Shown: positions 31,096-54,290 of the stretch, piece after piece | Position numbering within the stretch: position 1 is the first letter of the stretch | Layout of the letters: each line of letters opens with the position of its first letter | Source: Roseomonas sp. OT10 | GTDB taxonomy: Bacteria; Pseudomonadota; Alphaproteobacteria; Acetobacterales; Acetobacteraceae | NCBI RefSeq assembly: GCF_020991085.1 | Contig: NZ_CP087719.1 | Location: forward strand, 992,001 to 1,056,000 | Reading direction: 5' to 3' | Length of the DNA: 64,000 nucleotides | Program-made: the position numbers and the translations under genes | Notes under the pieces: generated by a model | Databases searched by the model: none | Seen by the model: only the letters and a program-made list of their open reading frames with translations | Told to the model about the DNA's origin: nothing

Positions 31096-31472
31096 GCCGG
31101 CGCGGGGGGGCGCCCGCTCCCCGGGGGCAAGGCTCTGCCTCGCCCCCGTACCCCCACTCCGCCAGGACCCTGCGGGCCCTGGACCCATTTGGCGCTGCCG
31201 CGGGACAGCCTGCGACGGGGTCGCGACGCCGAGGAGCTTGGCTCCTCGGCGGGACCGGCCGCCGCAATCGCTGACGCCTTCAAAGCTATTCTGGAGTCCC
31301 GCCTGTCCGAGCTCCGTCAGGGTTCAACTCGCAGGCTGACGCTCACCGCGCAAAGCCAACTCCCAGCGGGGACCGGGGCCCGCTTGTGGCCCCGGCAGGG
31401 GAGGGTCTGGGAGGGGACGGCGTCCCCTCCCGGTCCACCGCAGGAACACGGCAGCACGACGGGTCAGGTCAT
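31096..31472. repeat. Dispersed multi-hairpin element, copy A (inverted relative to B and C)
   Basis: About 377 bp that matches copies B and C on the opposite strand over its full length. Conserved internal stems include a GAGGGGACG-C-CGTCCCCTC palindrome, a GCCGAGGAGC/GCTCCTCGGC stem, GGGGGC...GCCCCC around an AGGC/GCCT core, and CCGGGGCC/GGCCCCGG. It occupies most of the 462-bp gap between ftsY and mtnC, which converge. The remaining 70 bp to mtnC shows nothing. No open frame inside is protein-like. Confidence 0.85.
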
Positions 31473-31541
31473 CTGGTGGAGGGGGAGGGTGCCTCCCCGG
31501 GCAATGGCCCGAAGTCCCGGGTTTCGCGGACCCGAGCGGTG

Positions 31542-32267
31542 TCAGCCGGCCCCTGCAGCCGGCGCGGCTAGGCCGAACAGCCGGGCGACGCCGCGGAAGT
31601 CTGCCGCGCGGGGGTGCCGGTCCGTGGCCTGCGTACCGTCCTCGGGGCGGACCAGCTGGCAGGCGGCGAGGCCGGCGGCCGTGGCGGCGTCCAGCTCCTC
31701 GGCCACGTCGGAGAGGAACAGGATCTCCCGCGGCGGCAGGTGCAGCCCGGCGGCGATGGCGGCGTAGCTGGCGGCCTCGCGCTTGGCGCCGATGCGGGTG
31801 TCGAAGAAGCCCTCGAACAGGCGGGTCAGGTTGCCCGCGACGGAGTGGCCGAAGAGCAGCCTCTGCGCCTCGGCCGAGCCGGAGGAGTAGACGCAGAGCC
31901 GCAGGCCGGCGCGCGACCAGGCGCGAAGGCAGGGGGCCACGTCGGGGTAGAGGTGCCCGTGCAGCCGGCCATCCTCGAAGCCCGTGCGCCAGATCAGGCC
32001 CTGCAGCGCCTTCAGCGGCGTGACCTTGGCATCCGTCGCCATCCAGCCACGCAGCGCCGCGCGCGGGTCCTGGCCGGGGGCGAGGTGCCCGACCTCGGCC
32101 AGGATGGCGGCGACCTCCGGCTCGGTGCCATGGGCATCCAGGAAGCCGTCCAGCGCCGCTGCCGCGAAGGGGAACAGGGTCTCCTTCACGAAGCTGATGG
32201 CGCTGGTGGTGCCCTCGATGTCCGTGACGACGGCGGCGATCGGCGCCGCCGGCGTGGTCTGGGTCAT
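31542..32267 (-). CDS. mtnC: Acireductone synthase (enolase-phosphatase E1)
   Basis: 241-residue HAD-superfamily enzyme that enolises and dephosphorylates 2,3-diketo-5-methylthiopentyl-1-phosphate in methionine salvage. AVVTDIEGTTSAISFVKETL is the HAD nucleophile motif with the family-specific EGTT. The later motifs are LCVYSSGSAEAQRLLF and EILFLSDVAEELDAATAAGL. The start ATG overlaps the mtnD stop by 4 bp (ATGA). It is the last gene of an mtnB-mtnD-mtnC operon; mtnA and mtnP are not in the window. Confidence 0.93.
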   Translation of the reverse strand: MTQTTPAAPIAAVVTDIEGTTSAISFVKETLFPFAAAALDGFLDAHGTEPEVAAILAEVGHLAPGQDPRAALRGWMATDAKVTPLKALQGLIWRTGFEDGRLHGHLYPDVAPCLRAWSRAGLRLCVYSSGSAEAQRLLFGHSVAGNLTRLFEGFFDTRIGAKREAASYAAIAAGLHLPPREILFLSDVAEELDAATAAGLAACQLVRPEDGTQATDRHPRAADFRGVARLFGLAAPAAGAG

Positions 32268-32827
32268 TCCGCGGCCCTGGCCGGCGCGGCCGCGGTGGCC
32301 GCCGGGAAGCGCTCGGCCATGTCCGTGCCGGTGTAGTGCGGCGTCCAGCCGGTGGTGTCGGTGAAGACCCGCAGCACGGTGAAGGAGGGCTCCGTGCCCG
32401 CGTCGAACCAGTGCTGGCTGTTGGCCGGCACGGAGATCAGGTCGCCCCGGGTGCAGTGGGCGTCGTAGACCTTGCCGTCCACGTGCAGCACGAAGTTGCC
32501 CGAGCCCTCGTGGAAGAAGCGGACCTCGTCCTCCGTGTGGGTGTGCTCGGAGAGGAACTTCGCCCGCATCGCATCCTTCTGCGGATGGCTGGGGTCCAGC
32601 TTGATGACGTCCGCCGTGCCGGCGCCCGTTTCGCCCATGAAGGCGTCGAGCTGCGGGCGATAGGCCTCCAGCACGGCCTCGGCCGCGGCGCCGGCGGGCA
32701 GGGGCGCGACCTCCCACCGTTCGAAGCGCACGCCGATCGGGCGCAGCGTGTCGGCGATGACCCGCGCATCCTGCGTGTCCAGCAGGACGGACTGGGACTT
32801 GGCGTCGTGAACGACGAGACGGCTCAT
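32264..32827 (-). CDS. mtnD: Acireductone dioxygenase
   Basis: 187-residue cupin enzyme of methionine salvage that oxidises acireductone. With Fe(II) the products are formate and the keto acid precursor of methionine; with Ni(II) an off-pathway reaction gives CO. The metal ligands are His95, His97 and Glu101 in FLSEHTHTEDEVRFF and His139 in VPANSQHWFDAGTEP. Length and motif order are normal. It overlaps both neighbours by 4 bp, so translation is coupled. Confidence 0.95.
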   Translation of the reverse strand: MSRLVVHDAKSQSVLLDTQDARVIADTLRPIGVRFERWEVAPLPAGAAAEAVLEAYRPQLDAFMGETGAGTADVIKLDPSHPQKDAMRAKFLSEHTHTEDEVRFFHEGSGNFVLHVDGKVYDAHCTRGDLISVPANSQHWFDAGTEPSFTVLRVFTDTTGWTPHYTGTDMAERFPAATAAAPARAAE

Positions 32828-33459
32828 GCGGGCGATCCTCCTCGGGCCTGGAGCGCGGCGAGCTCGCAGGCCAGCATGAATTCAAGGGCTTCCATCCGGG
32901 CCAGGGCGCCGGGCATGTCGGGGCCCCATACATAGATGCCGTGACCCCGGATCAAGTAGCCGGGAGGGATGGGCAGGCCGTCCGCGGCCATCTCCTGCCA
33001 GCGGGCCTCGACCCGGCCTTGCAGGCGGGGGATGTCCTGGTCGTTCTCGAAGACCGGGACCTCGACCGTCGCCTCGTGCGTCGGCAGGCCGGGGAAGGCC
33101 TTCAGCAGCTCGTAGCCCTCCAGCAGCACCACGTCGCCGGAGAGGCGGGAGAGGACGGTGTTGGCCGGACTGTGCCCGTGCAGCACCGCCCCCGCGTCGG
33201 GGAAGCGGCGATAGGCGCCGCAGTGCAGCAGCGTCTCGGCGGAGGGGCGCAGGGCGGCATCCTCCGCCGTTCCGTCCAGGTCCACGATCATGACCTGCCC
33301 GGCGTCGAGGAAGCCCTTGTGGCTGCCGGAGCGCGTGATGGCGATGCGGCCATCCGCCAGGCGGAGGGAGATGTTGCCCGCGGTCGCCGGCACCCAGCCC
33401 AGCCGGTCCAGCCGGTTCCCGGCCGCGACGATGGCCTCGGCGGCCTCCTGCTCGGTCAT
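32824..33459 (-). CDS. mtnB: Methylthioribulose-1-phosphate dehydratase
   Basis: 211-residue class II aldolase-fold zinc enzyme of methionine salvage. WVPATAGNISLRLADGRIAI, the zinc motif AVLHGHSPANTVLSRL (HxH) and GYLIRGHGIYVWGPDMPGAL (third His) are all in place. I chose the ATG at 33459 over the TTG at 33465 because a run of seven G lies 6-12 bases upstream. It leads the mtnB-mtnD-mtnC operon. Confidence 0.93.
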   Translation of the reverse strand: MTEQEAAEAIVAAGNRLDRLGWVPATAGNISLRLADGRIAITRSGSHKGFLDAGQVMIVDLDGTAEDAALRPSAETLLHCGAYRRFPDAGAVLHGHSPANTVLSRLSGDVVLLEGYELLKAFPGLPTHEATVEVPVFENDQDIPRLQGRVEARWQEMAADGLPIPPGYLIRGHGIYVWGPDMPGALARMEALEFMLACELAALQARGGSPA

Positions 33460-33644
33460 TCCCAACCCCCCCTTCCGGCCTCCCAGGAATTCTGGGGCAG
33501 GCCCGGCCCTGGGCGCGCGTCGTGACGGGAGGGCGCCGGCGCGTCAATCGCGCGCCGATGCCCAGGGGCGCCGGCAGCCATGCGCTGCCACCCTGTGGCC
33601 GGAGGCTGTCCCCGGGCCGCGGGCGACGCGGGCCCCAAACGAAG

Positions 33645-33697
33645 CGGGCCCGGTGGGGCCGGGCGGCGCCATGGCCGTCCCGGCCCCACCGGGCCCG
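33645..33697. terminator. Strong 19-bp perfect hairpin downstream of tatA
   Basis: Bases 33645-33663 and 33679-33697 are exact reverse complements, separated by a 15-base loop. The hairpin lies 50 bp beyond the stop of tatA (leftward), which fits a transcription terminator separating tatA from mtnB-mtnD-mtnC, although no T-run follows. The rest of the 287-bp gap between mtnB and tatA shows nothing else. Confidence 0.55.
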
Positions 33698-33746
33698 GAA
33701 GGGGGCGCCGGACGGGGCCAGCGGCCCGGCCGGCGGTTCGCCTGCC

Positions 33747-34019
33747 TTACGCCGCGGGGCGCGACGGATTGGCGGTGGTGGTCGCGTTGCCGGTCCCGGT
33801 GGTCGGGGCGCCCGGCGTGCCCGGCGGCGGCAGGTTGCCGGCCGGCGGGGTGTGGGTGCCATCCGCCATGGAGGCGTCCTCGTCCTCGCGCATGTTCTTC
33901 TTGAACGACTTGATGCCCGTGGCGAGGTCGCCCATCAGCCCGCTGATCTTGCCGCTGCCGAAGAGCAGCAGCACGACGAGCAGCACGACGAGCCAGTGCC
34001 AGATGCTGAACGAACCCAT
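33747..34019 (-). CDS. tatA: Twin-arginine translocase subunit TatA
   Basis: 90-residue protein. The single N-terminal membrane helix is [20 protein letters not shown], with the conserved FG..KI hinge, followed by an amphipathic helix ([20 protein letters not shown]) and a disordered, threonine- and proline-rich tail. TatA forms the pore-like component that exports folded proteins with RR signals; two binding proteins in this window carry such signals. tatB and tatC are not adjacent. The 281-bp gap upstream (34020-34300) is GC-rich, with short palindromes and no gene. Confidence 0.92.
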
Positions 34020-34300
34020 GGTGAAGCCTCGATCCCCGTGACTGTCGCGGGACGCCCCCGGTGGCGCCCTGGATATTCGGGCCGACACTAGTGGCGCGGG
34101 CGGTCCGGCGCAAACCGGGCCGCGACGAATCAGGTGGGGGGCCGGGGGGGCCGGGGCAACCGGGGCCGGCCCGATGGCGTGCAACGCTTGGTAACGGGGC
34201 TGCGACCGGCCGGCAGGGGCCGGCCCGAATGCGGGGGCGCCCCTGGGCGGGCAGGGGCCCCACGGGTCGGTCCGGATGGCGTCGCGGCCCAGGGCCGCCC

Positions 34301-37300
34301 CTATTCCGCCGGCACGGCCCGCGCGGCCGGGGCCTTCGCCGCCCGCCCGCGCCGCCCGCGGGCCACCCAGGCGACGCCGCGTCCGACATCGTCCATCAGC
34401 GTATAGGCGGCCGGCACGAAGACCAGGCTGAGCAGGGTGGAGGTGATCAGCCCGCCGATCACCGTCACCGCCATGGGCGAGCGGAACTCCGCATCCGCCC
34501 CCAGGCCGAGGGCGATGTGCGCCATGCCCGCCGTCATGGCGATGGTGGTCATCACGATCGGCCGGGCGCGCTTGCGGGCCGCCTCCAGCAGCGCCTCGCG
34601 CACCGGCAGGCCGGCGCGCTGGCTCTCGATCGCGTATTCCACCAGCAGGATCGAGTTCTTGGCGACGATGCCCATCAGCATCAGCACCCCGATCACCGAG
34701 GAGACGCCCAGCGCCTGCTGCGCCAGCAGCAGCGCGACCAGCGCGCCGCCGAGCGAGAGGGGCAGGGCGGTCATGATGGTCAGCGGCTGCAGGAAGCCGC
34801 CGAACAGCACCACCAGCACCAGGTAGACCAGCAGCACGCCGGCGCCGAGCGCCATGACGAAGCCCTGGAACAGCTCCGCCATGATCTCCGCGTCGCCCAC
34901 CGCCTTCTCGTGCACGCCGGGGGGGAGGGCCTGCATCACCGGCAGGCCGGCGACCAGGGCGCTGGCCTCGCCCAGCGGCATGCCGGACAGCTCCGCCTCC
35001 ACCGTCACCTTGCGCGCGCGGTCCAGCCGGTCGATCTGGGTCGGGCCGCTGCCCAGCCGGATCTCCGCCACCGCGTCGAGCGGCACGGAGCGGCCGTTGC
35101 TGCCGGTCACGCGCAGGGTGCGCAGCACGGCGAGGTCGTCGCGTGCGCCCTCGGTCAGCATCACCCGGATCGGCACCTGCCGGTCGGGCAGGCTGTACTT
35201 GGCGAGCTGCGCGTCGATGTCGCCCAGCGTCGCGACGCGCGCGGTGTTGGCGATGGCCGCGACCGACACGCCCAGCTCCGCCGCCCGCTCCGAGCGCGGG
35301 ACGATCTGCAATTCCGGCCGGGCGAGGCTGGCGGTGGAGCGGGCGCCGGGGAATTGCGGCAGGGCGCGCATCTCGCTCTCCAGCCGGCGGGCGGTGGCGA
35401 TCAGCGCCTCCGGGTCCTCGCCGACCAGGGTGGTGGTGATCTTGGTGCCGCTCTCCCCCGCCGCGCCGAAGCGCAGCCGCACGCCGGGGATGGCGGCCAG
35501 CGCCGGGCGCACATCCGTCTCGAACTGCGTCTGGGTCAGGGCGCGCCTGCCGCGTGGCACCAGGTTGACGATCAGGGTGGCGTTGCGCGGGTCGCCCGCC
35601 TGGCTGCCGCTGACGGGCATGCCGCCATCCGCCTGGAAGGTGCCGATGGCGGCGAAGACGGAGGTCACCTCCGGCCGCGCGCGCAGGATGGCGGTGGCCT
35701 GGGACACGGCGGCTTCCGTCTCGGCCAGCCGGGCGCCGGGCGCCAGCTCCAGGTTGAGGGTGGAGCGGTTCATGTCCGGGGCGGGGACGAAGTCCTGCGG
35801 GATCATTGGCACCAGCGCGACGGAGCCGGCGAAGAACAGCACCCCCCCGGCCAGGGTCACCCAGCGATGGCGCAGCGACCAGCGCAGCAGGCGGAGATAG
35901 CCGCGCATCACCCGGCCCTCGCTGTCCTGGTGCCCCTCGGCATCCTTCGGCCGCAGAAGGTAGGCCCCCATCAGCGGGGTCAGCAGCCGCGCCACCACCA
36001 GGGAGAAGGCGACGGCGGCGGCGACGGTCAGGCCGAACTGGCGGAAGAACTGGCCCGGGATGCCGGGCATGAAGGCGACGGGGACGAAGACGGCCAGGAT
36101 GCAAGCGGTGGTGGCGACCACGGCCATGCCGATCTCGGCCGAGGCTTCCAGCGCCGCGCGGCGCGGGGTCAGGCGCTGCCCGTCCGGCCCGCGCCCGGTG
36201 CGCAGGTGGCGGACGATGTTCTCGATCTCCACGATCGCGTCGTCCACCAGCACGCCGACGACGAGGGTGATGCCCAGCAGCGTGACGTTGTTCAGCGAGT
36301 AGCCCAGCGCGTACATCGCCGCGAAGGTCGGGACCAGCGACAGCGGCATGGCGATGGCCGAGATCAGCGTCGCGCGGAGGTTGCGCAGGAAGACCCAGAC
36401 CACCAGCGTCGCGAGGCCCGCGCCGATCAGCAGCGCCTCGATGGCCCCGTGATAGCCCTCGATGACGAATTCCGTGGTGGAGGCGACGCGGGCGATCTCC
36501 GTCCCCGGCCGCGCGGCGGCCAGCTTCGCCACCGTCGCCGCCACGCGCTCGGAGACGGCGACCTCGCTGGAGCCGCGCGTGCGCATCACCTCGAAGGCGA
36601 CGACGGGCGCATCGTTCAGCCGGGCGGCGGTACGGATCTCGGCGGTGGCGTCGGTGACGGTGCCGAGGTCGGACAGCCGCGCGGTGCGGCCGCCGGGAAG
36701 GATGATCGGCCGCTCGCGCAGCGCCTCCAGGCTGGGCGCGCTGCCCAGGGTGCGCACCGCCTGTTCGCCCGCGCCCAGCGTGCCGCGCCCGCCGGGGCGG
36801 TCCACGTTGAGGTCGCGGAGCTGCGCGTTCACCTCGGCCGCGGTGATGCCCAGCGCCGCGAGGCGGTCGGGATCGAGCGCGACCCGGACCTCCCGGTCCG
36901 CGCCGCCGACGCGGTTGACCTGTGCCACGCCGGGGATGGCGAGCAGCGCCTTGGCCACGGTGTCGTCCACGTACCAGCTCGTCTCCACCGGGGAGAGGCC
37001 GGGGACCCGCACGGTGTAGGTGCCGATCGGCGCGCCGGTGATCTCGACGCGCGTCACCTGCGGCTCGCGGATGTCGGCCGGCAGGTCGGAACGGATGCGC
37101 GAGAGCCGGTCGCGGATGTCGCTGACCGCCTGGTCGATGTCCTTGCCCAGCGCGAACTCGACCGCCGTGGTGGAGGCGCCGTCCGTCACGGTGGAGGTGA
37201 TGTGGCGCACGTCGCCCAGGCCGGAGACGGCGTCCTCCACCCGCCGCGTCACCTGGGTCTCCAGCTCCGACGGCGCCGCACCCGGCTGGGCCACGGTGAC

Positions 37301-38604: not shown

Positions 38605-38615
38605 GCGTTCTTACC

Positions 38616-39413: not shown

Positions 39414-39429
39414 TCTGCCGGTAAATTCA

Positions 39430-41574: not shown

Positions 41575-41618
41575 GCCGCACAGCCTGCCAGCGGCGCGGC
41601 CTCATGCCGGTTGCTGGA

Positions 41619-41868
41619 TGGCCTGACCCGTCGTGCCGTGGTGTTCCGGCGTCGGACCGGGAGGGGACGCCGTCCCCTCCCAGACCCTCCCCTGCCGGGG
41701 CCACAAGCGGGCCCCGGTCCCCGCTGGGAGTTTGGTGCTTCCGGTAGATGTCCGCCTGCGGGCTGATCCCAGACGGAGCGCGGACAAGCGGGACTCCAGA
41801 ATAGTTTTGAAGGCGTCCGCGAGGGCGACGGCCGTACCCGCCGAGGAGCCAAGCTCCTCGGCGCCTAG
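41619..41868. repeat. Dispersed multi-hairpin element, copy B, left part (interrupted by ISs)
   Basis: Matches the first about 250 bp of copy C in the same orientation, starting near TGACCCGTCG and ending at the CTAG target of the IS5-family insertion (41865-41868). It contains the GAGGGGACG/CGTCCCCTC palindrome, the CCGGGGCC/GGCCCCGG stem and the CCGAGGAG/CTCCTCGG stem. It begins 45 bp after the histidine kinase stop. Confidence 0.85.
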
Positions 41869-42631
41869 GTCGTGGACTCATAAGATTTGAGCCACAGACG
41901 TGTTGAGGCGAGGAGAATGGCGGCGAGGAAGTTGCGCGCGAGCTTGTCGAAGCGGGTGGCGATGCGCCTGAAGTGCTTGAGCTTGCAGAAGAAGCGTTCG
42001 ACCTGATTGCGTTGACGGTAGAGGGTCGGATCGACGGAGCGCTGTATCTTCCGGTCCCGCTGGGTCGGGATATGGGCGCAGCCTCCGCGATCCCGAACCA
42101 GATCGAGGATGGCCTGCGCGTCATAGCCCCGGTCAGCGACAAGGGCTTGGGCGGGCGGCAGGCCGTCGATCAGGGCCTCCACGGCGGCCTTGTCTGAGGC
42201 TTGTCCAGCCGAGAGCACGATCCGCAGCGGCAATCCATCCTGGTTCACCAGGACGTTGATCTTGGTGCTCAGTCCTCCACGAGAACGGCCGATGGCGTGA
42301 TCCGGGCCCCCTTTTTTCCACCGGCGGCATGCTGGTGGGCCCGGATGATGGAACTGTCGATCAGGTGCAGGGATTGAGGCGATGTTGCCGCCAGAGCCTC
42401 AAAGACCCGCAGCCAGACCCCGGCCTTCGCCCACCGGTTGTAGCGATTGTAGATCGTGGTGGAGGGACCATAGCGGCTCGGCAGGTCCCGCCATGGCGAG
42501 CCTGTTCGCAGCACATAGAAAATCCCGTTGATCACCCGACGATCGTCCACCCGGGCCACCCCGCGGGGCTTGTTCGGCAGCAACGCCTCAATCAACCGCC
42601 ACTCCGCCTCGCTCAAATCGTACCTCGCCAT
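41865..42631 (-). CDS. IS5-family transposase, two frames joined by a programmed -1 frameshift
   Basis: ORF 1 (42631 down to 42269) starts MARYDLSEAEWRLIEALL and carries the first catalytic Asp in LHLIDSSIIRAHQHAAGG. ORF 2 (from about 42317 down to 41865) carries the second Asp in ALVADRGYDAQAILDLV and the Glu in RQRNQVERFFCKLKHFRR. A slippery A6 run (42312-42317, read A AAA AAG) is where a -1 shift restores one continuous DDE transposase through GPDHAIGRSRGGLSTKI. The stop codon TAG is formed by the CTAG target duplication, not by the element. The start has a GGAAGGAG site upstream; the IS3 insertion lies 17 bp before the start codon and removes the original promoter region. Confidence 0.88.
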
Positions 42632-42698
42632 CCAAGGCTCCTTCCCAGTGAACCGCGCCGGGTTTGGCGGAGGCTCCAACCGTTGAGAGGATGGAGCG

Positions 42699-43031
42699 AT
42701 GACGGCGAAGAAGACGGCGGCGAGCTACTCGCCTGAGGTTCGGGAGCGGTCGGTGCGGCTGGTGCTGGACGGCGCCGGGGAGCATGGCTCGCAATGGGCG
42801 GCGATTGGCTCGATCGCGGCGAAGATCGGCTGCACGGCGGAGACGCTGCGTCGCTGGGTCCGGCAGGCCGAGCGTGACCGCGGCAAGCGTGCCGGGCCCA
42901 CGAGCGAGGATCGGGATCGCATCAAGGCGCTGGAGCGGGAGAACCGCGAGCTGCGCCAGGCGAACGAGATCCTGCGCAAGGCATCAGCGTATTTTGCCCT
43001 GGCGGAGCTCGACCGCCGGTCGAAGCCATGA
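42699..43031 (+). CDS. IS3-family transposase OrfA (DNA-binding part)
   Basis: 110-residue protein with an N-terminal helix-turn-helix ([20 protein letters not shown]) and a C-terminal leucine-zipper-like helix ([20 protein letters not shown]). It recognises the ends of the element and dimerises. It overlaps orfB by 4 bp (ATGA at 43028-43031). In this family a frameshift between the two often yields the full OrfAB transposase. Confidence 0.93.
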
Positions 43032-43933
43032 TCGCCTTCATCGACGATCATCGGGGCGTGTACGGGGTCGAGTCGATCTGCCGGGTTCTGCCGATCGCCC
43101 CGTCCACCTACCACGCCCATGCCGCGCGCCGCGCCGATCCCACTCTGGGCTCGGCCAGGTCGCAGCGGGACAGCATGCTGCGGGCGGAGGTGCGGCGGGT
43201 CCACGCCGAGAACTTCGGCGTCTACGGCGTGCGGAAGGTCTGGCGCCAGCTCGGCCGCGAGGGGACGTCGGTCGCCCGCTGCACGGTGGCGCGGCTGATG
43301 CGCCAGATGGGCCTGCGCGGCGTGGTGCGTGGCAAGGAGACCAGGACGACGGTGCCCGACAAGGGCGCGCCATGCCCGGCCGACCGGGTAAACCGGCAGT
43401 TCCTGGCGCCGCGGCCGAACCTGCTCTGGGTGTCGGACTTCACCTACGTCGCGACCTGGCAGGGCTTCGTCTACGTCGCCTTCGTCATCGACACCTTCGC
43501 GCGGCGGATCGTCGGCTGGCGGGTGTCGCGCACCTCCCATGCTGGCTTCGTCCTGGATGCCCTGGAGCAGGCGCTGCATGACCGGCGGCCTGTCCAGGGC
43601 ATGGGGCTGATCCATCACAGCGATCGCGGGGTCCAATACGTGTCTATCCGCTACACCGAGCGCCTGGCGGAAGCGGGCATCGAGCCGTCGGTCGGCAGCG
43701 TCGGCGACAGCTACGACAACGCGCTGGCCGAGAGCGTCATCGGCCTGTTCAAGACCGAGGTCATTCGGCGCCGCGGCCCGTGGCGCAGCCTGGAGGGCGT
43801 CGAGTTCGCCACCCTCGAATGGGTGGACTGGTTCAACAACCGCCGCCTCCTCGAGCCGATCGGAAACATCCCGCCCGCCGAGGCGGAGGCGCGCTACTAT
43901 GCCGCCCAGGAGGCCATAGCCCTGGCGGCCTGA
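43028..43933 (+). CDS. IS3-family transposase OrfB (DDE integrase core)
   Basis: 301-residue catalytic half with an HTH_21 region ([20 protein letters not shown]) and an rve core. The catalytic acids are Asp in [19 protein letters not shown], Asp in [20 protein letters not shown] and Glu in [19 protein letters not shown], with [13 protein letters not shown] following as expected. The gene is intact, so the element may still be mobile. Confidence 0.94.
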
Positions 43934-44025
43934 CTCACGCCAAACAGCCTCCGCCAAACCCGGCGCGGTTCACAGAGACTTGAATCAGCCTCCCGCTCAA
44001 CCAGCAAGCTTTATGAGTTCAGAAC

Positions 44026-44155
44026 CTAGACCCCGTGTCAGGCTGTCCCGCGGCAGCGCTGATCGGGTCCAGGGCCCGCAGGGTCCTGGCGGAGTGGGGG
44101 TACGGGGGCGAGGCGGAGCCTTGCCCCCGGGGAACGGGCGCACCCCACGCCGGCG
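44026..44155. repeat. Dispersed multi-hairpin element, copy B, right part
   Basis: Continues copy B after the IS insertion. The stretch after CTAG reads ACCCCGTGTCAGGCTGTCCC and matches copy C from 54169 onward, including the GGGGGCGAGGC...GCCTTGCCCCC stem. Together with the left part it gives about 376 bp, the same length as copies A and C. It ends about 28 bp before the stop of the convergent amidohydrolase gene. Confidence 0.85.
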
Positions 44156-44182
44156 CGGATCAGGGCAACCCGCGCTCCGTCA

Positions 44183-45370
44183 TCACTCCGCCGACAGGTG
44201 ATCGACGCGCCGGCCGCCCTGCATCACCAGCCCCACATGCTCCAGCGCGGCGATGTCGCGCAGCGGGTCGCCGCGCAGGCTGATCACGTCCGCCAGCTTG
44301 CCCGGCTCCAGCGTGCCGACGCTGTCTGCCATCCCGATGGCCTCGGCGGCGCGGCGGGTGATGCCCTCCAGCGCCTGCTCCGGCGTGGCGCCGAACTCCA
44401 CCGCCTTCAGCGCCTCGAACCACAGAAGGCCGTGCATGGAATCCGTCCCCAGCGCCCAGCGCACGCCGGATTCCAGCATCAGCCGGAAGGTGTCCGGCGC
44501 GCGCCCGCGGGATATCCGCAGCTTGGCCATGATGCGCGGGTCGTGGCCGTCGCCCTTCTCGATCCCGTCGGGGTGCTGCGAGATGGCGTTGTTCGCGACT
44601 AGCCAGGTCCCTGCCTTGCGCATCAGCGCGAAATCCTCGGCGGTGGCGAGGCGGCCGTGCTCGATCGTGTCCACCCCCGCCTCGACGCACCAGCGGATGG
44701 CCGGGCCGCCATGGGCATGGACGGCGGCGGGCTTGCCGTCGCGATGCGCCTCCTCGACGATCAGCCGGATCTCCTCGGGCGAGTAGAAGCAGGTCTCGGC
44801 GGGCGCACGGGCGGAGGAGGTGCCGCCGGTCGCGAAGAACTTGATCAGGTCCGCCCCGGCGGCGAGGTTCTCGCGGACGTGGCGGCGGATCTCCTCCGGC
44901 CCGTCGCTCGCGGTCAGCCCGGTGCCATGCCCGTGCCGCGCGGCGATGGGGCGGGTGGCGACGCGCAGCCGCGGCCCGGGGATGCGCCCGGCCTGCTGCG
45001 CGTCCCTGATCTCCACGTCGAGGAAATGCTCCTCGCCCACCACGCGCATGGTGGTGACGCCGGAGAGCAGGTCGGCCCGGATGTTCGGGATGGCGCGCAG
45101 CATCGCCTGGGTGGCGGGGCCGCGGAGCTGGCCGATCTGGTGGCCGAGGCCGGGGATGATGGACAGGTGCGTGTGCGCGTCCACCAGCCCGGGCAGCAGC
45201 GTCTCCTCGCCGCGGTCGATCAGCGCGGCGCCCTCGGGCACGGAGAGGTCCGCCAGGCGGCCGACCGCGGCGATCCGCCCGTCCTCGACCAGCACCGCCC
45301 CGCCCTCGATGGGCGGGGCGCCGGTGCAGGGGATCAGCCGCGCGGCGCGGATCAGGGTATGGCGGCTCAC
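44183..45370 (-). CDS. Metal-dependent amidohydrolase family protein
   Basis: 395-residue amidohydrolase. The metal motif is LLPGLVDAHTHLSIIPGLG (HxH), followed by LIKFFATGGTSSARAPAET (Lys likely carbamylated), KPAAVHAHGGPAIRWCVEAG, VDTIEHGRLATAEDFALM and WALGTDSMHGLLWFEAL (Asp). That is the imidazolonepropionase/Xaa-Pro dipeptidase-like branch. The GTG start overlaps the stop of the M20 peptidase gene (GTGA at 45367-45370), so the two enzymes probably act in one pathway on an amide or peptide substrate. Confidence 0.85.
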   Translation of the reverse strand: MSRHTLIRAARLIPCTGAPPIEGGAVLVEDGRIAAVGRLADLSVPEGAALIDRGEETLLPGLVDAHTHLSIIPGLGHQIGQLRGPATQAMLRAIPNIRADLLSGVTTMRVVGEEHFLDVEIRDAQQAGRIPGPRLRVATRPIAARHGHGTGLTASDGPEEIRRHVRENLAAGADLIKFFATGGTSSARAPAETCFYSPEEIRLIVEEAHRDGKPAAVHAHGGPAIRWCVEAGVDTIEHGRLATAEDFALMRKAGTWLVANNAISQHPDGIEKGDGHDPRIMAKLRISRGRAPDTFRLMLESGVRWALGTDSMHGLLWFEALKAVEFGATPEQALEGITRRAAEAIGMADSVGTLEPGKLADVISLRGDPLRDIAALEHVGLVMQGGRRVDHLSAE

Positions 45371-47615: not shown

Positions 47616-47634
47616 TGCCGGGCGGCCCATCGGC

Positions 47635-49299: not shown

Positions 49300-49351
49300 C
49301 GCCCTCTCCCCCGTGCCCGTCGCGGCCAGCATGGCAGGCGGGGCGGCGGGG

Positions 49352-49381: not shown

Positions 49382-49395
49382 CGCAGCGTGCCGGG

Positions 49396-50121
49396 ATGCA
49401 GGAGCTCGCCCGCGAGGACCCCGGCCACGACGATGACGAGCTCCGGGTCGCCGGGCGCGTCGCCACCGTCCGCGCGGTGGTCGAGGACCGGCTCCGCGCC
49501 GCCATCATGCGCGGCCGCTTCCGCCCCGGTCAGCGCCTGCCGGAACGCGAGCTCTGCGCCCTGACCGGCGTGGGCCGCACCTCGGTGCGGGAGGCGCTGC
49601 GGCAGCTGGAGGCGGAGGGGCTGGTGGTGGTGGTGCCGCACCGCGGCCCCGCGGTCGCCGCCATCACCCCGCAGGAGGCGCGCGACCTCTATGCCGTGCG
49701 CAGCGTCCTGGAGGGATTCGCCGGCCGCGGCTGCGCCGAGCGGGCGCGGCCGGAGCACCGCGCCGCCCTCTCGGCGGCGATGGCGGCGATCGAGCGCGCC
49801 GGCGCCACCGGGGACGACCTGGGCGTGATGCGCGCCACCGCCGCCTTCTACGCCGCGCTGCTGGACGGGCACGGCAACGAGGCGCTGCGGCGCAGCCTGG
49901 GCACGCTGCACAACCAGCTCAACCTGCTGCGCTTCGGCTCGGTGCAGTGGCCGGGACGGCTGCCGCGCTCCATCGCCGAGCTGCGCGCGATCCACGACGC
50001 GGTGCTGGCCCGCGACCCCGACGCCGCCGAGGCCGCCTGCCTCCGGCATATGCGGGAGGCGGCCGAGGCGGCGCAGGAGATGCTGGCGGCCCCGCCGCCG
50101 GATGTACGGGAGGCTGTCTGA
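49396..50121 (+). CDS. GntR family transcriptional regulator, FCD (FadR) subfamily
   Basis: 241-residue regulator. The winged helix reads LRAAIMRGRFRPGQRLPERE then LCALTGVGRTSVREALRQLE and GLVVVVPHRGPAVAAITPQE. The all-helical FCD ligand domain follows (about 95-230), with metal-ligand-type residues in IHDAVLARDPDAAEAACLRH MREA. FCD regulators respond to small carboxylates. The start is the ATG at 49396. It precedes an SDR and a Bug binding protein on the same strand (3 and 46 bp gaps), which it probably controls. Confidence 0.9.
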   Translation: MQELAREDPGHDDDELRVAGRVATVRAVVEDRLRAAIMRGRFRPGQRLPERELCALTGVGRTSVREALRQLEAEGLVVVVPHRGPAVAAITPQEARDLYAVRSVLEGFAGRGCAERARPEHRAALSAAMAAIERAGATGDDLGVMRATAAFYAALLDGHGNEALRRSLGTLHNQLNLLRFGSVQWPGRLPRSIAELRAIHDAVLARDPDAAEAACLRHMREAAEAAQEMLAAPPPDVREAV

Positions 50122-50124
50122 ACC

Positions 50125-50886
50125 ATGCGGCTGGATTTCTCGAACCAGGTCGTGGCCGTCACCGGGGCGGGCACCGGCTTCGGCCGGGCCATCGCGCGGT
50201 CCTTCGCCGCGCTCGGGGCCCGGGTCTTCGCCACCGACGTGAAGGCGGAGGGGCTGGCGGAGACCGCCGCGGGGCAGGCGGGCATCGCCACCGCGGTGGT
50301 GGACCTGACCGACCGCGCCGCGGCCGCCGCCTGGATCGCGGCGGTGGAGCGGGAGGCCGGGGCGCCGGTGGCGGTGCTGGTGAACAATGCCGGCGGCACG
50401 CTGTTCCAGACCTTCCGCCCGATCGACGAGGTGGCGGATGCCGACTGGGACCGCATCTTCGCGGTGAACGTGGATGCGACCTTCGTGCTCTGCCGCGCCG
50501 CGGCGCCGGGGATGAAGCGGGCCGGCCGGGGGCGGATCGTCAACATCAGCTCGACCGCCGCGCTGAAGGCCTCGCGCACCCGGATCCAGGCCTATGCCTC
50601 CGCCAAGCACGCGGTGATCGGCCTGACGCGCCAGTTGGCGCAGGAACTCGGCCCCCACGGCATCACCGTGAACAGCGTCGCGCCGGGGCTGATCCTGACC
50701 GACGAGGAGAAGCGGGCGGAGTGGGAGGGGGGCGGCCAAGCGCGCCGCGACGCCACCCTGGCCGCCATCCCGCTGGGCCATCTGGGCGAGGCGCAGGACA
50801 TCGCCGATGCGGTGCTGTTCTTCGCCTCGCCGCTCGCCAAGTTCGTCTCGGGGCAGGTGCTGCCGGTCAATGGCGGCTCCTTCTGA
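50125..50886 (+). CDS. Short-chain dehydrogenase/reductase
   Basis: 253-residue classical SDR. VVAVTGAGTGFGRAIARSFA is the nucleotide motif (TGxxxGxG), VLVNNAGGTLFQTF the NNAG motif, and IVNISSTAALKASRTRIQAY followed by ASAKHAVIGLTRQLAQEL gives the catalytic Ser, Tyr and Lys (YASAK). PGLILT closes the active site. It begins 3 bp after the GntR stop. It probably oxidises a hydroxy intermediate; NAD preference is suggested by the acidic ATDVKAEGL. Confidence 0.9.
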   Translation: MRLDFSNQVVAVTGAGTGFGRAIARSFAALGARVFATDVKAEGLAETAAGQAGIATAVVDLTDRAAAAAWIAAVEREAGAPVAVLVNNAGGTLFQTFRPIDEVADADWDRIFAVNVDATFVLCRAAAPGMKRAGRGRIVNISSTAALKASRTRIQAYASAKHAVIGLTRQLAQELGPHGITVNSVAPGLILTDEEKRAEWEGGGQARRDATLAAIPLGHLGEAQDIADAVLFFASPLAKFVSGQVLPVNGGSF

Positions 50887-50932
50887 TGCCCGGACGCCGA
50901 AGCCCCGTTCTTCCTGCCGGAGCCTGCCCGCC

Positions 50933-51937
50933 ATGACCGATGCCTCCACCACGCCCGGCCGCCTGCCGCGCCGCGGTCTCCTCCTCGCCGGCGGGGGGCT
51001 GCTGGCCGCGCCGGCGCTGCACGCCCAGCCCGCCTGGCCGACCCGGCCGATCCGCATGGTCGTGCCCTTCGCCACCGGCGGCGGTACGGATGTGACGATG
51101 CGGCTGCTCGGCCCGAAGCTGGGCGAGATCCTCGGCCAGCCGGTGGTGATCGAGAACCGCCCCGGCGGCGGCAGTACGGTGGGCACCGACTACGTCGCCA
51201 AGTCGGCGCCGGACGGCAGCACCTTCGTCCTCGCTACCCTCTCCTCGACCGGGGTGGCGAAGGGACTCTACGCCAACCTCTCCTACGACCCGGTGAAGGA
51301 CCTCACCGCGATCGCGCCCACGGTCTTCATCCCGATCTGCCTGGGCGTCACCACCAAGGGGATCGATGCGCGCGACGCCGCCGCCTTCATTGCCCTGCTG
51401 AAGGCCAATCCCAACCGCTTCCAGTACGGCAGCAGCGGCGTCGGCTCGACCGGGCACATCGCCAACGCCAACTTCCTGCGCGCCACGGGGACGCAGGCGG
51501 AGCACGTGCCGTACCGCGGCGGCGGCCAGGTCTTCTCCGCCCTGCTGGCGGGCGAGATCCAGTTCACCCACGACATCCCCAGCCTGCTCAAGCCCTATCA
51601 CGATGCCGGGCAGGCGCGGGTGCTGTTCATCGCCGCAGACCGGCGCTCCACCCTGCTGCCGGACGTGCCGACCCTCGCGGAGGCCGGGGTGCCGGACTAC
51701 AAGGCCTATTCCTGGTACGGCATCTTCGGCCCGGCGGGCACGCCGCGCCCGATCGTCGAGCGCATGGCGGCGGCGATTGAGCAGGCGCTGAACGACCCGA
51801 CGATCAAGGCCCGGCTGGACGAGCTGGGGACGCCGGCCATGACCGGCTACACCCCCGACCGCTTCGCCCGCTACGTGGCCGAGGAGATCGACACCTGGGT
51901 GCCGCTGGTCCGGGCCTCCGGCGCCCGGGTGGAGTAG
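50933..51937 (+). CDS. Bug-type tripartite tricarboxylate transporter substrate-binding protein
   Basis: 334-residue periplasmic protein. The N-terminus LPRRGLLLAGGGLLAAPALH AQP is a signal peptide with an RR-G-LLL core, possibly Tat. The body shows IRMVVPFATGGGTDVTMRLL, VVIENRPGGGSTVGTDYVAK and HVPYRGGGQVFSALLAGEIQ, standard for the family. No TctA/TctB genes are adjacent. Context (GntR, SDR, hydroxyacid dehydrogenase) suggests a carboxylate ligand. Confidence 0.88.
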   Translation: MTDASTTPGRLPRRGLLLAGGGLLAAPALHAQPAWPTRPIRMVVPFATGGGTDVTMRLLGPKLGEILGQPVVIENRPGGGSTVGTDYVAKSAPDGSTFVLATLSSTGVAKGLYANLSYDPVKDLTAIAPTVFIPICLGVTTKGIDARDAAAFIALLKANPNRFQYGSSGVGSTGHIANANFLRATGTQAEHVPYRGGGQVFSALLAGEIQFTHDIPSLLKPYHDAGQARVLFIAADRRSTLLPDVPTLAEAGVPDYKAYSWYGIFGPAGTPRPIVERMAAAIEQALNDPTIKARLDELGTPAMTGYTPDRFARYVAEEIDTWVPLVRASGARVE

Positions 51938-51967
51938 CGCGGGCGCCGGGTCGCGCGGCCCGGCTGT

Positions 51968-52933
51968 TCAGGCGACGCGGTGGGGCGGCTCCTCGCCCCG
52001 CCGCAGCAGCGCGTCCAGGTTGTCCAGGCACCGGAAGCCCATGGCGTCGCGCGTCTCCTCCGTCGCGCTGCCCAGATGCGGCAGCAGGGTGACGTTGGGC
52101 GCGTTGTGGTAGCCCTCGAAGATCTTCGGCTCGCCGGCGAAGACGTCCAGCCCGGCCGCGCGCAGGTGCCCCGAATGCAGCGCCGCGCAGAGGGCCGCGT
52201 CGTCCACCGTCGTGCCGCGCCCGGTGTTCACCACGATGCTGCCCGGCCGCAGCAGGGTGATGCGCCCGGCATCGAGCCAGCCCTTCGTCGCCTCGCCGCC
52301 GGGGATGTGCATGGACAGGATGTCGATGGCGCCGAGGAAGTCCTCGTCGCTGTCGTGGTAGATCGCGCCGCGCTCCTCGGCGGCGGGGAGCCGGCTGCGG
52401 TTGCGGTAGTGGATCTCCATCCCGAAGCCGCGCGCCATGTGGGCCAGGGTCTGGCCGATCCGCCCCATGCCCAGCACGCCGAGCCTCTTGCCCTCCAGCG
52501 TCACGCCCATCAGCTGGGTCGGCGTCCAGCCCGTCCAGGCGCGGTCGCGCAGCATCCGCTCCGCCTCGCCCGCGCGCCGGGCGCACATCAGGATCAGCGT
52601 CATCGCGATCTCGGCGGTGGCGGCGTTCAGCACGTCGGGCGTGTTGGTCACGGCGATGCCGCGCGCCTTCGCCGCCTCCAGCGCGATGTGGTCGGTGCCG
52701 ACGCTGAAGGTGGCGAGGATGCGCACGCTTGCGGGAAGCTGGCGGATCGCATTGGCGCCGAGCGGATCGCCGGCCGCGCAGAGGATGCCCGCCGCCCCCT
52801 CGGCCGCCCGCGCCAGCTCCGCGGCGGTGAAGGGGGTGTCGTCCTGGCGCAGCCGGGCGTCGTAGTCGCGCGCGGCGCGTGCCTCCACGGCCGGCGGGAA
52901 GCGGCGGGTCAGCAGGATGGTCGGCTTGGTCAT
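51968..52933 (-). CDS. D-2-hydroxyacid dehydrogenase (glyoxylate/hydroxypyruvate reductase-like)
   Basis: 321-residue NAD(P)-dependent enzyme. The dinucleotide fold is LGVLGMGRIGQTLAHMARGF. The catalytic Arg is in IVVNTGRGTTVDDAALCAAL, Glu in AAGLDVFAGEPKIFEGYHN and His in VTLLPHLGSATEETRDAMG. The sequence after the fold (EIHYRNRSRL) suggests NADPH use. It converges with the Bug gene, 30 bp apart, and diverges from the SDR gene to its right. Confidence 0.9.
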   Translation of the reverse strand: MTKPTILLTRRFPPAVEARAARDYDARLRQDDTPFTAAELARAAEGAAGILCAAGDPLGANAIRQLPASVRILATFSVGTDHIALEAAKARGIAVTNTPDVLNAATAEIAMTLILMCARRAGEAERMLRDRAWTGWTPTQLMGVTLEGKRLGVLGMGRIGQTLAHMARGFGMEIHYRNRSRLPAAEERGAIYHDSDEDFLGAIDILSMHIPGGEATKGWLDAGRITLLRPGSIVVNTGRGTTVDDAALCAALHSGHLRAAGLDVFAGEPKIFEGYHNAPNVTLLPHLGSATEETRDAMGFRCLDNLDALLRRGEEPPHRVA

Positions 52934-53084
52934 GGGGTCCCTCCCGGTTCGGCGGCGCAGGATGGCGAGGCGCCGCCGCCTTGCCCAGGGGCCCCGGAGG
53001 GCGCACCCCCGTCCGGGGCGGGTTGCCAGCCGGCCGCCCGGGGGCCAGCCTCCCGGCCCATTTCACGTCAGGAGTGCAGGGGCG

Positions 53085-53873
53085 ATGGATCTCGGGTTGC
53101 AGGGCAAGCGGGCGCTGGTCATGGGCGCGTCCAAGGGGCTGGGCCGTTCGGTGGCGGAGGCGCTGGCGGCCGAGGGGGTCGCGCTCACCATCTCCGGCCG
53201 GGAACAGGCCAGCCTGGATGCCGCCTGCGCGGCGCTGAAGGGACTCGGCGCGCCCAAGGCGGTCGGCATCCCCGCCGACGTGGCCGAGGCGGCGCAGATG
53301 GATGCGCTGGTGGACGGCGCCCTGGCGGCGCTGGGCGGGGTGGACATCGTCCTGCTGAACCATGGCGGCCCGCCGCCGGGCACGGCGCTGTCGCTGACGG
53401 AGGAGGCGCTGCAGACCTGGTTCCGCCGCATCGTGCTCTCGCCGATCCAGGTGGCGAACCGGCTGCTGCCCGGCATGCGGGAGCGGAAGTGGGGCCGCAT
53501 CCTGACCGTGGGCAGCACCGGCATGGAGCAGCCGATTCCCAACCTGGCGCTGTCGAACGTGCTGCGCGCCTCGATCGTCGGCTGGAACAAGACCCTGGCC
53601 TCCGAGGTGGCGGGCGAGGGCATCACCTGCAACATCATCGCGCCCGGCGCCTTCCGCACCGACCGCACCGTGGCGATCGCCAGGGCGCAGGGGGAGAAGA
53701 CGGGCCAGACCGTCGAGGAGGTGGCCGCGGAGCGGTCGAAGACCATCCCCGCCGGCCGCTACGGCGAGCCGGACGAGTACGGGCCGATGGCGGCGTTCCT
53801 GGCTTCGGACCGCGCCGCCTACCTGACGGGCTGCATCCTGCGCATCGACGGCGGCGCGGTTCGCGCAGTCTGA
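53085..53873 (+). CDS. SDR-family oxidoreductase with a non-canonical active site
   Basis: 262-residue SDR. RALVMGASKGLGRSVAEALA is the nucleotide fold, and LLNHGGPPPGTALSLTEEAL stands where NNAG is usual. The catalytic Ser is in ILTVGSTGMEQPIPNLALSN, but where YxxxK should follow the sequence is LSNVLRASIVGWNKTLASEV, so no Tyr is in register. The PGAFRTDR motif and a C-terminal LTGCILRIDGGAVR remain. A family of FabG-like proteins with this LSNxLR variant exists; their activity is unclear to me. The start follows an AGGAG site 14 bases upstream. Confidence 0.82.
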   Translation: MDLGLQGKRALVMGASKGLGRSVAEALAAEGVALTISGREQASLDAACAALKGLGAPKAVGIPADVAEAAQMDALVDGALAALGGVDIVLLNHGGPPPGTALSLTEEALQTWFRRIVLSPIQVANRLLPGMRERKWGRILTVGSTGMEQPIPNLALSNVLRASIVGWNKTLASEVAGEGITCNIIAPGAFRTDRTVAIARAQGEKTGQTVEEVAAERSKTIPAGRYGEPDEYGPMAAFLASDRAAYLTGCILRIDGGAVRAV

Positions 53874-53914
53874 GCACCGGATCGCCGGGAGCGGTGGCCC
53901 ATCCGGACGGCGGA

Positions 53915-54290
53915 ATGACCTGACCCGTCGTGCTGCGGTGTTCCTGCGGCGGCACCGGAAGGGGACGCCGTCCCCTCCCGGACCCTCCCCTGCCGGGGCC
54001 ACAAGCAGGCCCCGGTCCCCGCTGGGAGTCTGGTGCTCCGTGGTGGGCGTCAACCTGCGGGCTGAACCCTGACGGAGTGCGGACAGGCGGGACTCTGAAA
54101 AAGTCTCATAGGCGCCAGCGAACGCGGACCCCGTGCCCGCCGAGGAGCATGGCTCCTCGGCGCCTTGACCCCGTATCAGGCTGTCCCGCGGCAGCGCTCA
54201 TCGGGTCCAGGGCCCGCAGGGTCCTGGCGGAGTGGGGTTACGGGGGCGAGGCAGAGCCTTGCCCCCGGGCCACGGGCAGCATGCCGGCAG
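53915..54290. repeat. Dispersed multi-hairpin element, copy C (uninterrupted, reference copy)
   Basis: About 376 bp starting ATGACCTGACCCGTCGTG and ending near the CCGGGCCACGGGC stretch. Stems: GAGGGGACG-like palindrome (here AAGGGGACG/CGTCCCCTC), CCGGGGCC/GGCCCCGG, CCGAGGAGC/GCTCCTCGG with loop ATG, and GGGGGCGAGGC/GCCTTGCCCCC with loop AGA. It fills the 442-bp gap between the SDR and hemerythrin genes, which converge. The remaining bases on either side hold no gene. Confidence 0.85.

What the first reader, a model, noticed from the sequence alone, without database searches (positions are those of the whole stretch)
31096..54290. A 375-bp multi-hairpin element repeated in three convergent gene gaps
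Three copies (31096-31472; 41619-41868 plus 44026-44155; 53915-54290) share length and the order of at least four stem-loops. Each copy sits between two genes that converge (ftsY/mtnC, histidine kinase/amidohydrolase, SDR/hemerythrin). Stem arms are kept while loops vary: the CCGAGGAG/CTCCTCGG stem has loops CCAAG, TTG or ATG, and the AGGC/GCCT stem has GGA or AGA. No terminal inverted repeats, target duplications or protein frame were found, so it is not an obvious MITE. It could be a bidirectional terminator, a REP-like nucleoid or gyrase site, or an RNA element. One copy is in the opposite orientation, as expected for a strand-neutral function.
Basis: partly seen in the sequence, partly recalled or inferred. 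Interest (0 to 1): 0.75.

Follow-up and report, generated by a model that had tools for sequence, protein, structure and literature searches.

The report
Hairpin transposon landing on stop codons
The repeat is a small, gene-less jumping DNA element, rich in hairpins, that often lands on the stop codons of genes and fills about two fifths of the sampled places where two genes of this bacterium run head-on into each other, perhaps ending transcription from both sides.

Summary
The element (about 415 bp; 53902-54315 in copy C) ends in 16-bp terminal inverted repeats (TACSGACGGCGGGATG) flanked by a 3-bp duplication, TGA/TGA or TCA/TCA (identical in 35 of 58). It is a MITE-type transposon, roughly 190-230 copies. 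Of 83 copies sampled, 66 lie between convergent genes (166 of 1100 junctions), 16 in tandem gaps, one in a divergent gap, none in a gene. In 45 of 65 copies with both ends, one end lies exactly on a neighbour's stop codon. Three congeneric relatives carry diverged elements with the same hairpin order; convergent gaps are filled most often there too (32/91 against 24/497 tandem), mostly at other positions than here. Hairpins show about fourfold fewer terminal-branch changes than spacers and covary among the relatives' copies. Best reading: a MITE, apparently immobile now, whose hairpins persist as strand-neutral transcript ends. That last step is inferred; copy C has no U-tract terminator, and no partner transposase was found.

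The parts
31077..31079 (+). TGA stop codon of ftsY, directly abutting the terminal repeat of copy A (insertion site; only this side of the duplication is recognisable)
   Evidence: orthologs in G003, G004 and G012 end at the same codon without an element
31080..31473 (-). Copy A: terminal repeat TACGGACGGCGGATG at 31080-31094 (one base fewer than consensus), hairpin core to about 31473; the distal terminal repeat is not recognisable
41602..41604 (.). TCA, left target duplication of copy B
   Evidence: left terminal repeat position
41605..41867 (+). Copy B, left part, with degenerate left terminal repeat (41605-41620, 5 mismatches)
41868..44026 (.). IS5-type insertion sequence (TA duplicated inside CTAG, by eye) carrying a nested IS3-type element (about 42650-43971); splits copy B
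44027..44182 (+). Copy B, right part, ending in a degenerate right terminal repeat
44183..44185 (-). TCA on the plus strand = TGA stop codon of the amidohydrolase gene = right target duplication of copy B
   Evidence: read by eye, one indel in the terminal repeat (the script placed it one base to the left)
53899..53901 (.). CCA, left target duplication of copy C (one mismatch to TCA)
53902..54315 (+). Copy C, complete element: terminal inverted repeats at both ends, about 414 bp
53957..53979 (+). Hairpin a, left (AGGGGAC-GCC-GTCCCCT core)
53993..54015 (+). Hairpin b, left (GGGGCC...GGCCCC)
54138..54162 (+).
54207..54227 (+). Hairpin b, right (CCAGGGCCC-GCA-GGGTCCTGG); covaries among the relatives' copies
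54242..54266 (+). Hairpin a, right (GGGGGCGAGGC-AGA-GCCTTGCCCCC)
54316..54318 (-). TCA on the plus strand = TGA stop codon of the hemerythrin gene = right target duplication of copy C

Best explanation
It is a MITE-type non-autonomous DNA transposon of about 415 bp. A cut-and-paste (DDE-type) transposase, not found in this genome, inserted it at the trinucleotide TSA, duplicating 3 bp. When the site is the TGA stop codon of a gene, the duplication leaves the reading frame intact. Insertions in genes, between genes of one operon and in divergent promoters are absent or rare, presumably lost; insertions in convergent gaps stayed. Copies are now old and transposition appears to have ceased in this genome: the copy tree is star-like and the terminal repeats are the most decayed part. 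The hairpin modules, arranged head-to-head (a-b ... centre ... b-a), changed about fourfold less than the spacers between them, so I infer that they are kept as a strand-neutral 3'-end structure: each of the two converging transcripts meets hairpins a and b soon after its stop codon, which ends or protects the RNA and limits antisense read-through. Shown: terminal repeats, 3-bp duplication, stop-codon coincidence, convergent bias, hairpin conservation, covariation among relatives' copies, largely different positions between this genome and three relatives. Inferred: transposase type, loss of the other insertions by selection, and the termination or protection function. My split: mobile origin 0.95, hairpin constraint after insertion 0.75, bidirectional transcript-end function 0.5.
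For: Terminal repeats in 167 places at <=2 mismatches against 0 for the reversed pattern; the 100 places listed all lie within 450 bp of a core copy (67 places were not listed). Duplication: TGA/TGA 21, TCA/TCA 13, TGA/TCA 1, TCA/TGA 0; the middle base agrees in 47 of 58 copies; two flush stop codons of convergent genes would instead give TGA...TCA. In 29 of 36 identical duplications the triplet is a neighbour's stop codon, against 39% of TSA sites in empty convergent gaps (p 9e-7). Convergent bias 66 of 83 against 166 of 1100, also against tandem gaps of 100 bp or more (65/166 against 14/252, p 9e-18; per 3' end 0.196 against 0.056, p 2e-6). Terminal-branch changes per column: hairpins 1.74, spacers 6.58, terminal repeats 12.0; star-like tree. 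Relatives' hairpin b: 325 of 369 cells paired against a shuffle maximum of 284, 46 double changes against a maximum of 23. ftsY ends at the same TGA with and without the element. Both strands of copy C fold better than shuffles (z -4.8 and -5.7).
Against: No T-tract terminator at copy C, so intrinsic termination of the classical kind is not expected. No autonomous partner with these ends. Within this genome stems rarely show compensatory changes (13 cells of 5224). Substitutions seen in one copy only are not rarer in hairpins than in spacers (0.67 against 0.61 per column; a measure biased in variable columns) and barely rarer in paired than unpaired core columns (0.59 against 0.65). In the relatives' hairpin b the number of extra pair types (19) is reached by shuffles (maximum 19). 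16 of 83 copies sit in tandem gaps, and 20 of 65 two-ended copies do not touch a called stop codon at either end (19 if copy B is read by eye). In G004 and G012 convergent gaps hold 8 of 17 and 6 of 17 filled junctions only. Between 1.78 and 2.02 Mb only 1 of 33 convergent gaps is filled, so the genome does not need it in every such gap. Gene conversion among copies could also keep hairpins alike.
Confidence: 0.6

Rival explanations
1. Plain selfish MITE: the convergent bias is only survivorship (insertion elsewhere is harmful), the element does nothing for the host, and hairpins stay alike because of gene conversion or because the transposase needed them.
For: Mobile anatomy; largely different positions in the relatives; 32 of 33 convergent gaps empty in the 1.78-2.02 Mb stretch; few compensatory changes within the genome; private substitutions no rarer in hairpins.
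Against: Long tandem gaps, where landing on the upstream stop codon should be harmless, are hit 3.5 times less per 3' end than convergent gaps. Hairpin columns show fewer terminal-branch changes than interleaved spacers (1.74 against 6.58), and transposition-level constraint alone does not act on copies that no longer move.
Confidence: 0.33
2. Targeted insertion: the transposase is guided to 3' ends between convergent genes, for example by positive supercoiling, by RNA polymerase collisions or by hairpins already there, so the bias reflects targeting rather than survival or function.
For: Stop codons are used more than their share of TSA sites within empty convergent gaps (29 of 36 against 39%); convergent gaps of all length classes are filled, including those that would overlap or be under 30 bp without the element (15 of 36, taking 425 bp off each filled gap).
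Against: Explains neither the hairpin constraint after insertion nor the palindromic hairpin order kept in relatives with different ends.
Confidence: 0.25
3. REP/BIME-like nucleoid or gyrase site: the hairpins are protein-binding DNA that handles supercoils trapped between convergent genes.
For: High copy number, extragenic, palindromic, convergent gaps, strand-neutral.
Against: Hairpin stems covary in the relatives, so base pairing rather than a fixed sequence is kept; only two partial copies in the sampled 100 of 286 kb of C2 and none in the sampled 60 of 73 kb of C3. No binding data.
Confidence: 0.15

Closest known systems
Bacterial MITEs in general (reviewed in PMC2229807 and PMC10969869; passages seen)
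   Same: Short, no protein frame, terminal inverted repeats, target duplication, high copy number, strongly folding transcripts
   Different: PMC2229807 describes them as under 200 bp, mostly A+T-rich with TA at the ends; this one is about 415 bp, G+C-rich, duplicates TSA and lies mainly between convergent genes. The terms 'convergent' and 'stop codon' do not occur in the text of PMC10969869.
Correia / NEMIS elements of Neisseria
   Same: Genome-wide MITE that changes transcripts through its folded RNA (passages)
   Different: Correia lies mainly upstream of genes and carries promoters and has TA ends; this one lies at 3' ends and shows no sigma-70-like promoter around copy C
ERIC elements of enterobacteria
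   Same: MITE that, at the 3' end of genes, alters mRNA stability (passages)
   Different: 127 bp, TA ends, orientation-dependent effect; this one is a head-to-head palindrome and sits in both orientations alike
REP/BIME elements (PMC2817692, PMC3733652; search listing with titles and abstract starts only)
   Same: Extragenic palindromes in high copy number, proposed roles in termination, mRNA stability and supercoiling
   Different: REPs are 20-40 bp, GTAG- or CGTC-tagged, with REP-associated tyrosine transposases (listing; absence of a target duplication recalled); this one has 16-bp terminal repeats and a 3-bp duplication
IS5 superfamily with 3-bp TNA duplications (IS1031 group; eukaryotic PIF/Harbinger and Tourist MITEs; recalled)
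   Same: 3-bp duplication of the form TNA (here TSA)
   Different: Ends do not match the IS1031-type ends that I recall; none of the 30 inspected of 34 PF01609 matches of this genome has a convincing pair of these terminal repeats

Membership tests
MITE (non-autonomous DNA transposon) | Terminal inverted repeats | tested here: met
   TACSGACGGCGGGATG at both ends; 167 places genome-wide at <=2 mismatches, reversed control 0
MITE (non-autonomous DNA transposon) | Target site duplication | tested here: met
   3 bp: 35 of 58 identical; middle base equal in 47 of 58; TGA/TGA 21, TCA/TCA 13, mixed 1. The conserved outer T and A rule out most other lengths mechanically, so the variable middle base carries the proof.
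MITE (non-autonomous DNA transposon) | Short, no transposase, many copies | tested here: met
   About 415 bp; 83 copies in 1.256 Mb, estimate 190-230 per genome; no gene called across the middle of a copy except in the IS that splits copy B
MITE (non-autonomous DNA transposon) | Autonomous partner with the same ends | tested here: not met
   None recognised at 30 inspected of 34 PF01609 matches (best chance-level matches 3 mismatches) nor near 100 listed of 167 terminal-repeat places. Other transposase families were not searched. A partner may have been lost, so I treat this as supporting rather than defining.
MITE (non-autonomous DNA transposon) | Empty sites or differing positions in relatives | tested here: met
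   Filled and empty orthologous gaps among G003, G004 and G012; one tandem gap filled in these three and empty in G000; 3' ends filled in G000 rarely filled in the relatives (2 of 13, 1 of 9, 1 of 10). A clean empty site matching both flanks of a G000 copy was not obtained.
Correia/NEMIS | TA duplication and Neisseria-type ends | tested here: not met
   Duplication is TSA; TA ends per PMC2229807 passages; the Correia end sequence itself was not compared
REP/BIME | 20-40 bp unit with GTAG/CGTC tag, linked to REP-associated tyrosine transposases | tested here: not met
   Unit is about 415 bp with a 3-bp duplication; RAYT genes were not searched for
Intrinsic (U-tract) terminator | G+C-rich hairpin followed by a run of T | tested here: not met
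   0 sites on either strand around copy C; copies A and B not scanned
Bidirectional transcript-end element (any mechanism) | Transcripts from both sides end or are processed at the element | not testable with these tools
   Needs RNA data
Known structured RNA family (Rfam 15) | Match to a covariance model | tested here: not met
   No match to E 1 over copy C; the only window match at gathering score is the IS3 ALIL pseudoknot

The most novel reading that the evidence does not exclude
A bacterial transposon family that lands on stop codons and has, in separate lineages of one genus (Roseomonas), built a genome-wide set of bidirectional transcript ends: the element is kept where two genes converge because its head-to-head hairpins serve both transcripts, so that a mobile element supplies about two fifths of the 3'-end architecture of convergent genes in the sampled genome.
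Probability: 0.4. Interest if true: 0.82.

Novelty: new variant of a known kind. Interest (0 to 1): 0.64.

Why it matters
MITEs are usually seen as scattered passengers. Here one occupies 66 of 166 sampled convergent junctions of a genome, sits on stop codons without changing the reading frame, and keeps its hairpins while its transposon ends rot. In three related genomes diverged elements with other ends again fill convergent gaps at a higher rate than tandem gaps, mostly at other sites. That makes a general question testable: can a transposon become the standard transcript-ending device of a genome, and is the convergent-gap bias made by targeting, by purging or by usefulness?

Tried and rejected
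Chance repeat: rejected. Feature confined to the window: rejected. Plasmid- or phage-borne repeat: no match in either collection (records of this or a very near genome may be left out). Two flush stop codons as the cause of the TGA/TCA triplets: rejected, because that would give TGA...TCA, seen once among 35 TSA pairs. Known RNA family: none at copy C. Intrinsic terminator by consensus: none at copy C. Autonomous insertion sequence with the same ends: in 1.256 Mb 88 terminal-repeat-like hits (<=3 mismatches; shuffled blocks gave 58 and 26 in all) lay away from copies and were looked over without a recognisable element; 30 of 34 PF01609 matches and 20 stretches with terminal-repeat hits gave none.

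Ancestral, positionally conserved elements shared with the relatives: not supported for G000 against G003, G004 or G012 (Fisher p 0.64, 1.0, 1.0; only about a quarter of G000 and less than a tenth of each relative were compared). Within-genome covariation as proof of structure: tried and weak. Private substitutions as a test of constraint gave no clear difference; I judged this measure biased in highly variable columns and used terminal-branch changes instead, which may also be affected by recombination between copies. The first alignment left minus-strand copies unturned and is not used for numbers. The reversed-pattern control rang 115 times, I think because the core is itself nearly symmetrical, so that control is void there. 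The conserved outer ends of the relatives' elements were only roughly aligned, and a target duplication was not tested there. The Fisher value printed for the replicate set compares unlike denominators and is not used. The synteny comparison of G000 with G003 gave no conserved convergent pair. The 16 weaker chained hits (98 chained, 82 kept) were dropped before the counts; copy B, whose halves are among them, was added back by hand, giving 83. The 82 aligned copies exclude copy B; one search used 80 of 82.
Full report
OBSERVATION. The three copies exist. A (minus strand), B and C share 84-88% identity over aligned stretches of about 250-380 bp, and 91-93% for the short right half of B. A 30-base core pattern occurs three times in the window with up to 3 mismatches and never in 100 shuffles. 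'mtnC' in particular is not established beyond 'HAD-like hydrolase'.

EXTENT AND ENDS. With copies turned, the left end reads TSA|TACcGACGGCGGGATG and the right end CATCCCGCCGTCCGTA|TSA, that is, a 16-bp terminal inverted repeat. The pattern TSATACSGACGGCGGGATG occurs 167 times at up to 2 mismatches, the reversed control 0 times. The 100 places that were listed all lie within 450 bp of a core copy; 67 were not listed. With up to 1 mismatch it occurs 79 times in this genome and not at all in the 39 other genomes searched.

TARGET DUPLICATION. In 58 copies with both terminal repeats the flanking triplets are identical in 35; the pairs of the form TSA are TGA/TGA 21, TCA/TCA 13, TGA/TCA 1, TCA/TGA 0 (Fisher 9e-9). 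The middle base agrees in 47 of 58. In 57 copies with longer flanks, 35 agree at exactly 3 bases and none at lengths 1, 2 or 4-10; the conserved outer T and A make most other lengths impossible, so the middle base is the real evidence. Two convergent genes ending flush with the element would give TGA...TCA, so the pattern is a duplication and not two stop codons. I read this as the footprint of a DDE-type transposase with target TSA. The class of enzyme is inferred from the duplication.

STOP CODONS. A home-made gene caller gave 1102 genes in 1.256 Mb (its stops at 31079, 44183, 53873 and 54316 agree with the ORF list). Of 65 copies with both terminal repeats recognisable (<=5 mismatches), 36 have identical triplets, and in 29 of these 36 one copy of the triplet is exactly the stop codon of a neighbour. 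Over all 65, one end is on a stop codon in 45 and both ends in none. In empty convergent gaps stop codons make up 39% of the TSA sites, so 29 of 36 is more than their share (p 9e-7). All three window copies show this by eye: A starts right after the ftsY TGA, B ends at the amidohydrolase stop, C ends at the hemerythrin stop. In G003, G004 and G012 ftsY ends with the same TGA without an element behind it (G003), although its next gene differs there.

GENE CONTEXT. Of 83 copies (82 good BLAST copies plus the split copy B) 66 lie in convergent gaps, 16 in tandem gaps, 1 in a divergent gap and none in a gene, against 166 convergent of 1100 junctions (p 5e-44). Against tandem gaps of at least 100 bp the ratio is 65/166 to 14/252 (p 9e-18); per 3' end it is 0.196 to 0.056 (p 2e-6, 82 of the 83 copies). 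Counting every BLAST hit, fragments included, 72 of 166 convergent, 23 of 768 tandem and 2 of 166 divergent junctions are filled. 41 further copies outside the blocks gave 27 convergent, 13 tandem, 1 divergent (chosen partly as best matches, partly by terminal-repeat hits). Orientation is even, 40 to 43. The genome estimate is 191 or 231 copies by two scalings. Elements are scarce in C1:1.78-2.02 Mb (one copy, convergent, so 1 of 33 convergent gaps against 72 of 166 in the blocks, p 2e-6); two partial copies lie in the first 100 of 286 kb of C2 and none in 60 of 73 kb of C3.

RELATIVES. Of 60 genomes searched by DNA, G000 among them, 16 (with G000) have some match, mostly weak; the strong ones are G003, G004 and G012 of the same genus. 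Their elements share the order hairpin a, hairpin b, centre, hairpin b, hairpin a, but not the sequence of the left half or the terminal repeats. In the stretches sampled, filled junctions are convergent 18/48, 8/20, 6/23; tandem 7/245, 8/142, 9/110; divergent 3/48, 1/21, 2/23. Convergent gaps are thus filled at a higher rate than tandem ones in each (p 7e-11, 9e-5, 0.02; together 32/91 against 24/497, p 2e-14), but only in G003 are most filled junctions convergent. Among these three (median protein identity 94-96%) some orthologous gaps are filled in all and others in one or two only, for example 346 bp in G003 against a 10-bp gap in G004. Against G000, positions are not shared beyond chance: of 3' ends with an element in G000, 2 of 13, 1 of 9 and 1 of 10 also have one in G003, G004 and G012, and one tandem gap filled in all three is empty in G000. 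So the family probably colonised the lineages largely separately.

STRUCTURE AND CONSTRAINT. Over 82 copies the hairpin blocks agree with the consensus at 0.95-0.98, spacers at 0.79-0.87, terminal repeats at 0.73-0.77. The copy tree is star-like (mean terminal branch 0.128, internal 0.021; nearest copy at median 10.9%). Terminal-branch changes per column are 1.74 in hairpins, 6.58 in spacers, 12.0 in terminal repeats (80 copies). A pure transposition requirement would protect the ends most, and the opposite is seen. Counter-results: within this genome compensatory changes are few (13 of 5224 cells), and substitutions private to one copy are as frequent in hairpins as in spacers (0.67 against 0.61). 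Among relatives' copies, hairpin b (41 distinct of 90 sequences) pairs in 325 of 369 cells against a shuffle maximum of 284, with 46 double changes against at most 23; slid controls reach at most 193 paired cells and 32 double changes; the number of extra pair types, 19, is reached by shuffles. Hairpin a pairs at 0.876 of its six outer positions against at most 0.810 with arms re-dealt. These are copies of related elements, so shuffles overstate significance. Single strands of copy C fold with z -4.8 and -5.7. Around copy C there is no T-tract terminator and no sigma-70 promoter-like site.

MECHANISM. I therefore take it as a MITE that inserted at TSA, was tolerated chiefly behind stop codons in convergent gaps, stopped moving in this genome, and whose hairpins are kept as a strand-neutral 3'-end structure. 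Whether it terminates, protects or processes RNA cannot be told from sequence. Survivorship alone and targeted insertion are the main rivals, and gene conversion could imitate constraint.

KNOWN KINDS. It meets the anatomical tests of a MITE except for a known partner. It does not fit Correia, ERIC or REP (see membership table and closest known; passages of PMC2229807 and PMC10969869 seen; PMC2817692 and PMC3733652 seen only as listings with abstract starts). Searches of the held library for Roseomonas with 'intergenic repeat' or 'miniature inverted-repeat' returned no paper. Searches on MITEs with stop codons, convergent genes or termination listed 25 of 144, 15 of 74, 12 of 16 and 7 of 7 papers, none of whose titles or abstract starts describes this. 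The 3-bp TNA target of the IS1031 group is recalled; one search did not confirm it.

Noticed in passing
window 41868-44026: An IS5-type insertion sequence with a nested IS3-type element sits inside copy B. The IS has four near-identical copies in the genome among the PF01609 matches, of which only this one lies in the repeat; the IS3 carries the ALIL frameshift pseudoknot (42986-43102).
   Followed up: partly
G000 C1:1780001-2020000 (L132-L143): Element-poor stretch: 1 of 33 convergent gaps filled against 72 of 166 in the blocks, with equal G+C content; possibly younger or rearranged DNA.
   Followed up: partly
G000 C2 (286 kb), L224-L232: The second replicon carries nine PF01609 matches with the same score and frame length (285 aa), evidently recent IS expansion, while the hairpin element is scarce in the 100 kb of it that were sampled.
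   Followed up: no
L251-L268 and blocks, element position about 96/97 of the padded copy C query: A subfamily of the element carries about 28 extra bases between the left spacer and hairpin a (at least 5 copies in the blocks; more in the later stretches).
   Followed up: no
L036 (G013:C1 about 4680486) and other weak hits in G006, G013, G014: More distant members of the genus have weak hits; the one read, in G013, lies in a gap with a similar series of hairpins separated by ACCCC motifs but little sequence similarity, so the hairpin architecture may be genus-wide.
   Followed up: no
G003 4187009, G004 63497, G012 714792: All three relatives have TGATCCGGRCGGCGGAACGC directly at a stop codon, resembling the terminal repeat of the window's species, but in G004 no hairpin core was detected there.
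   Followed up: no
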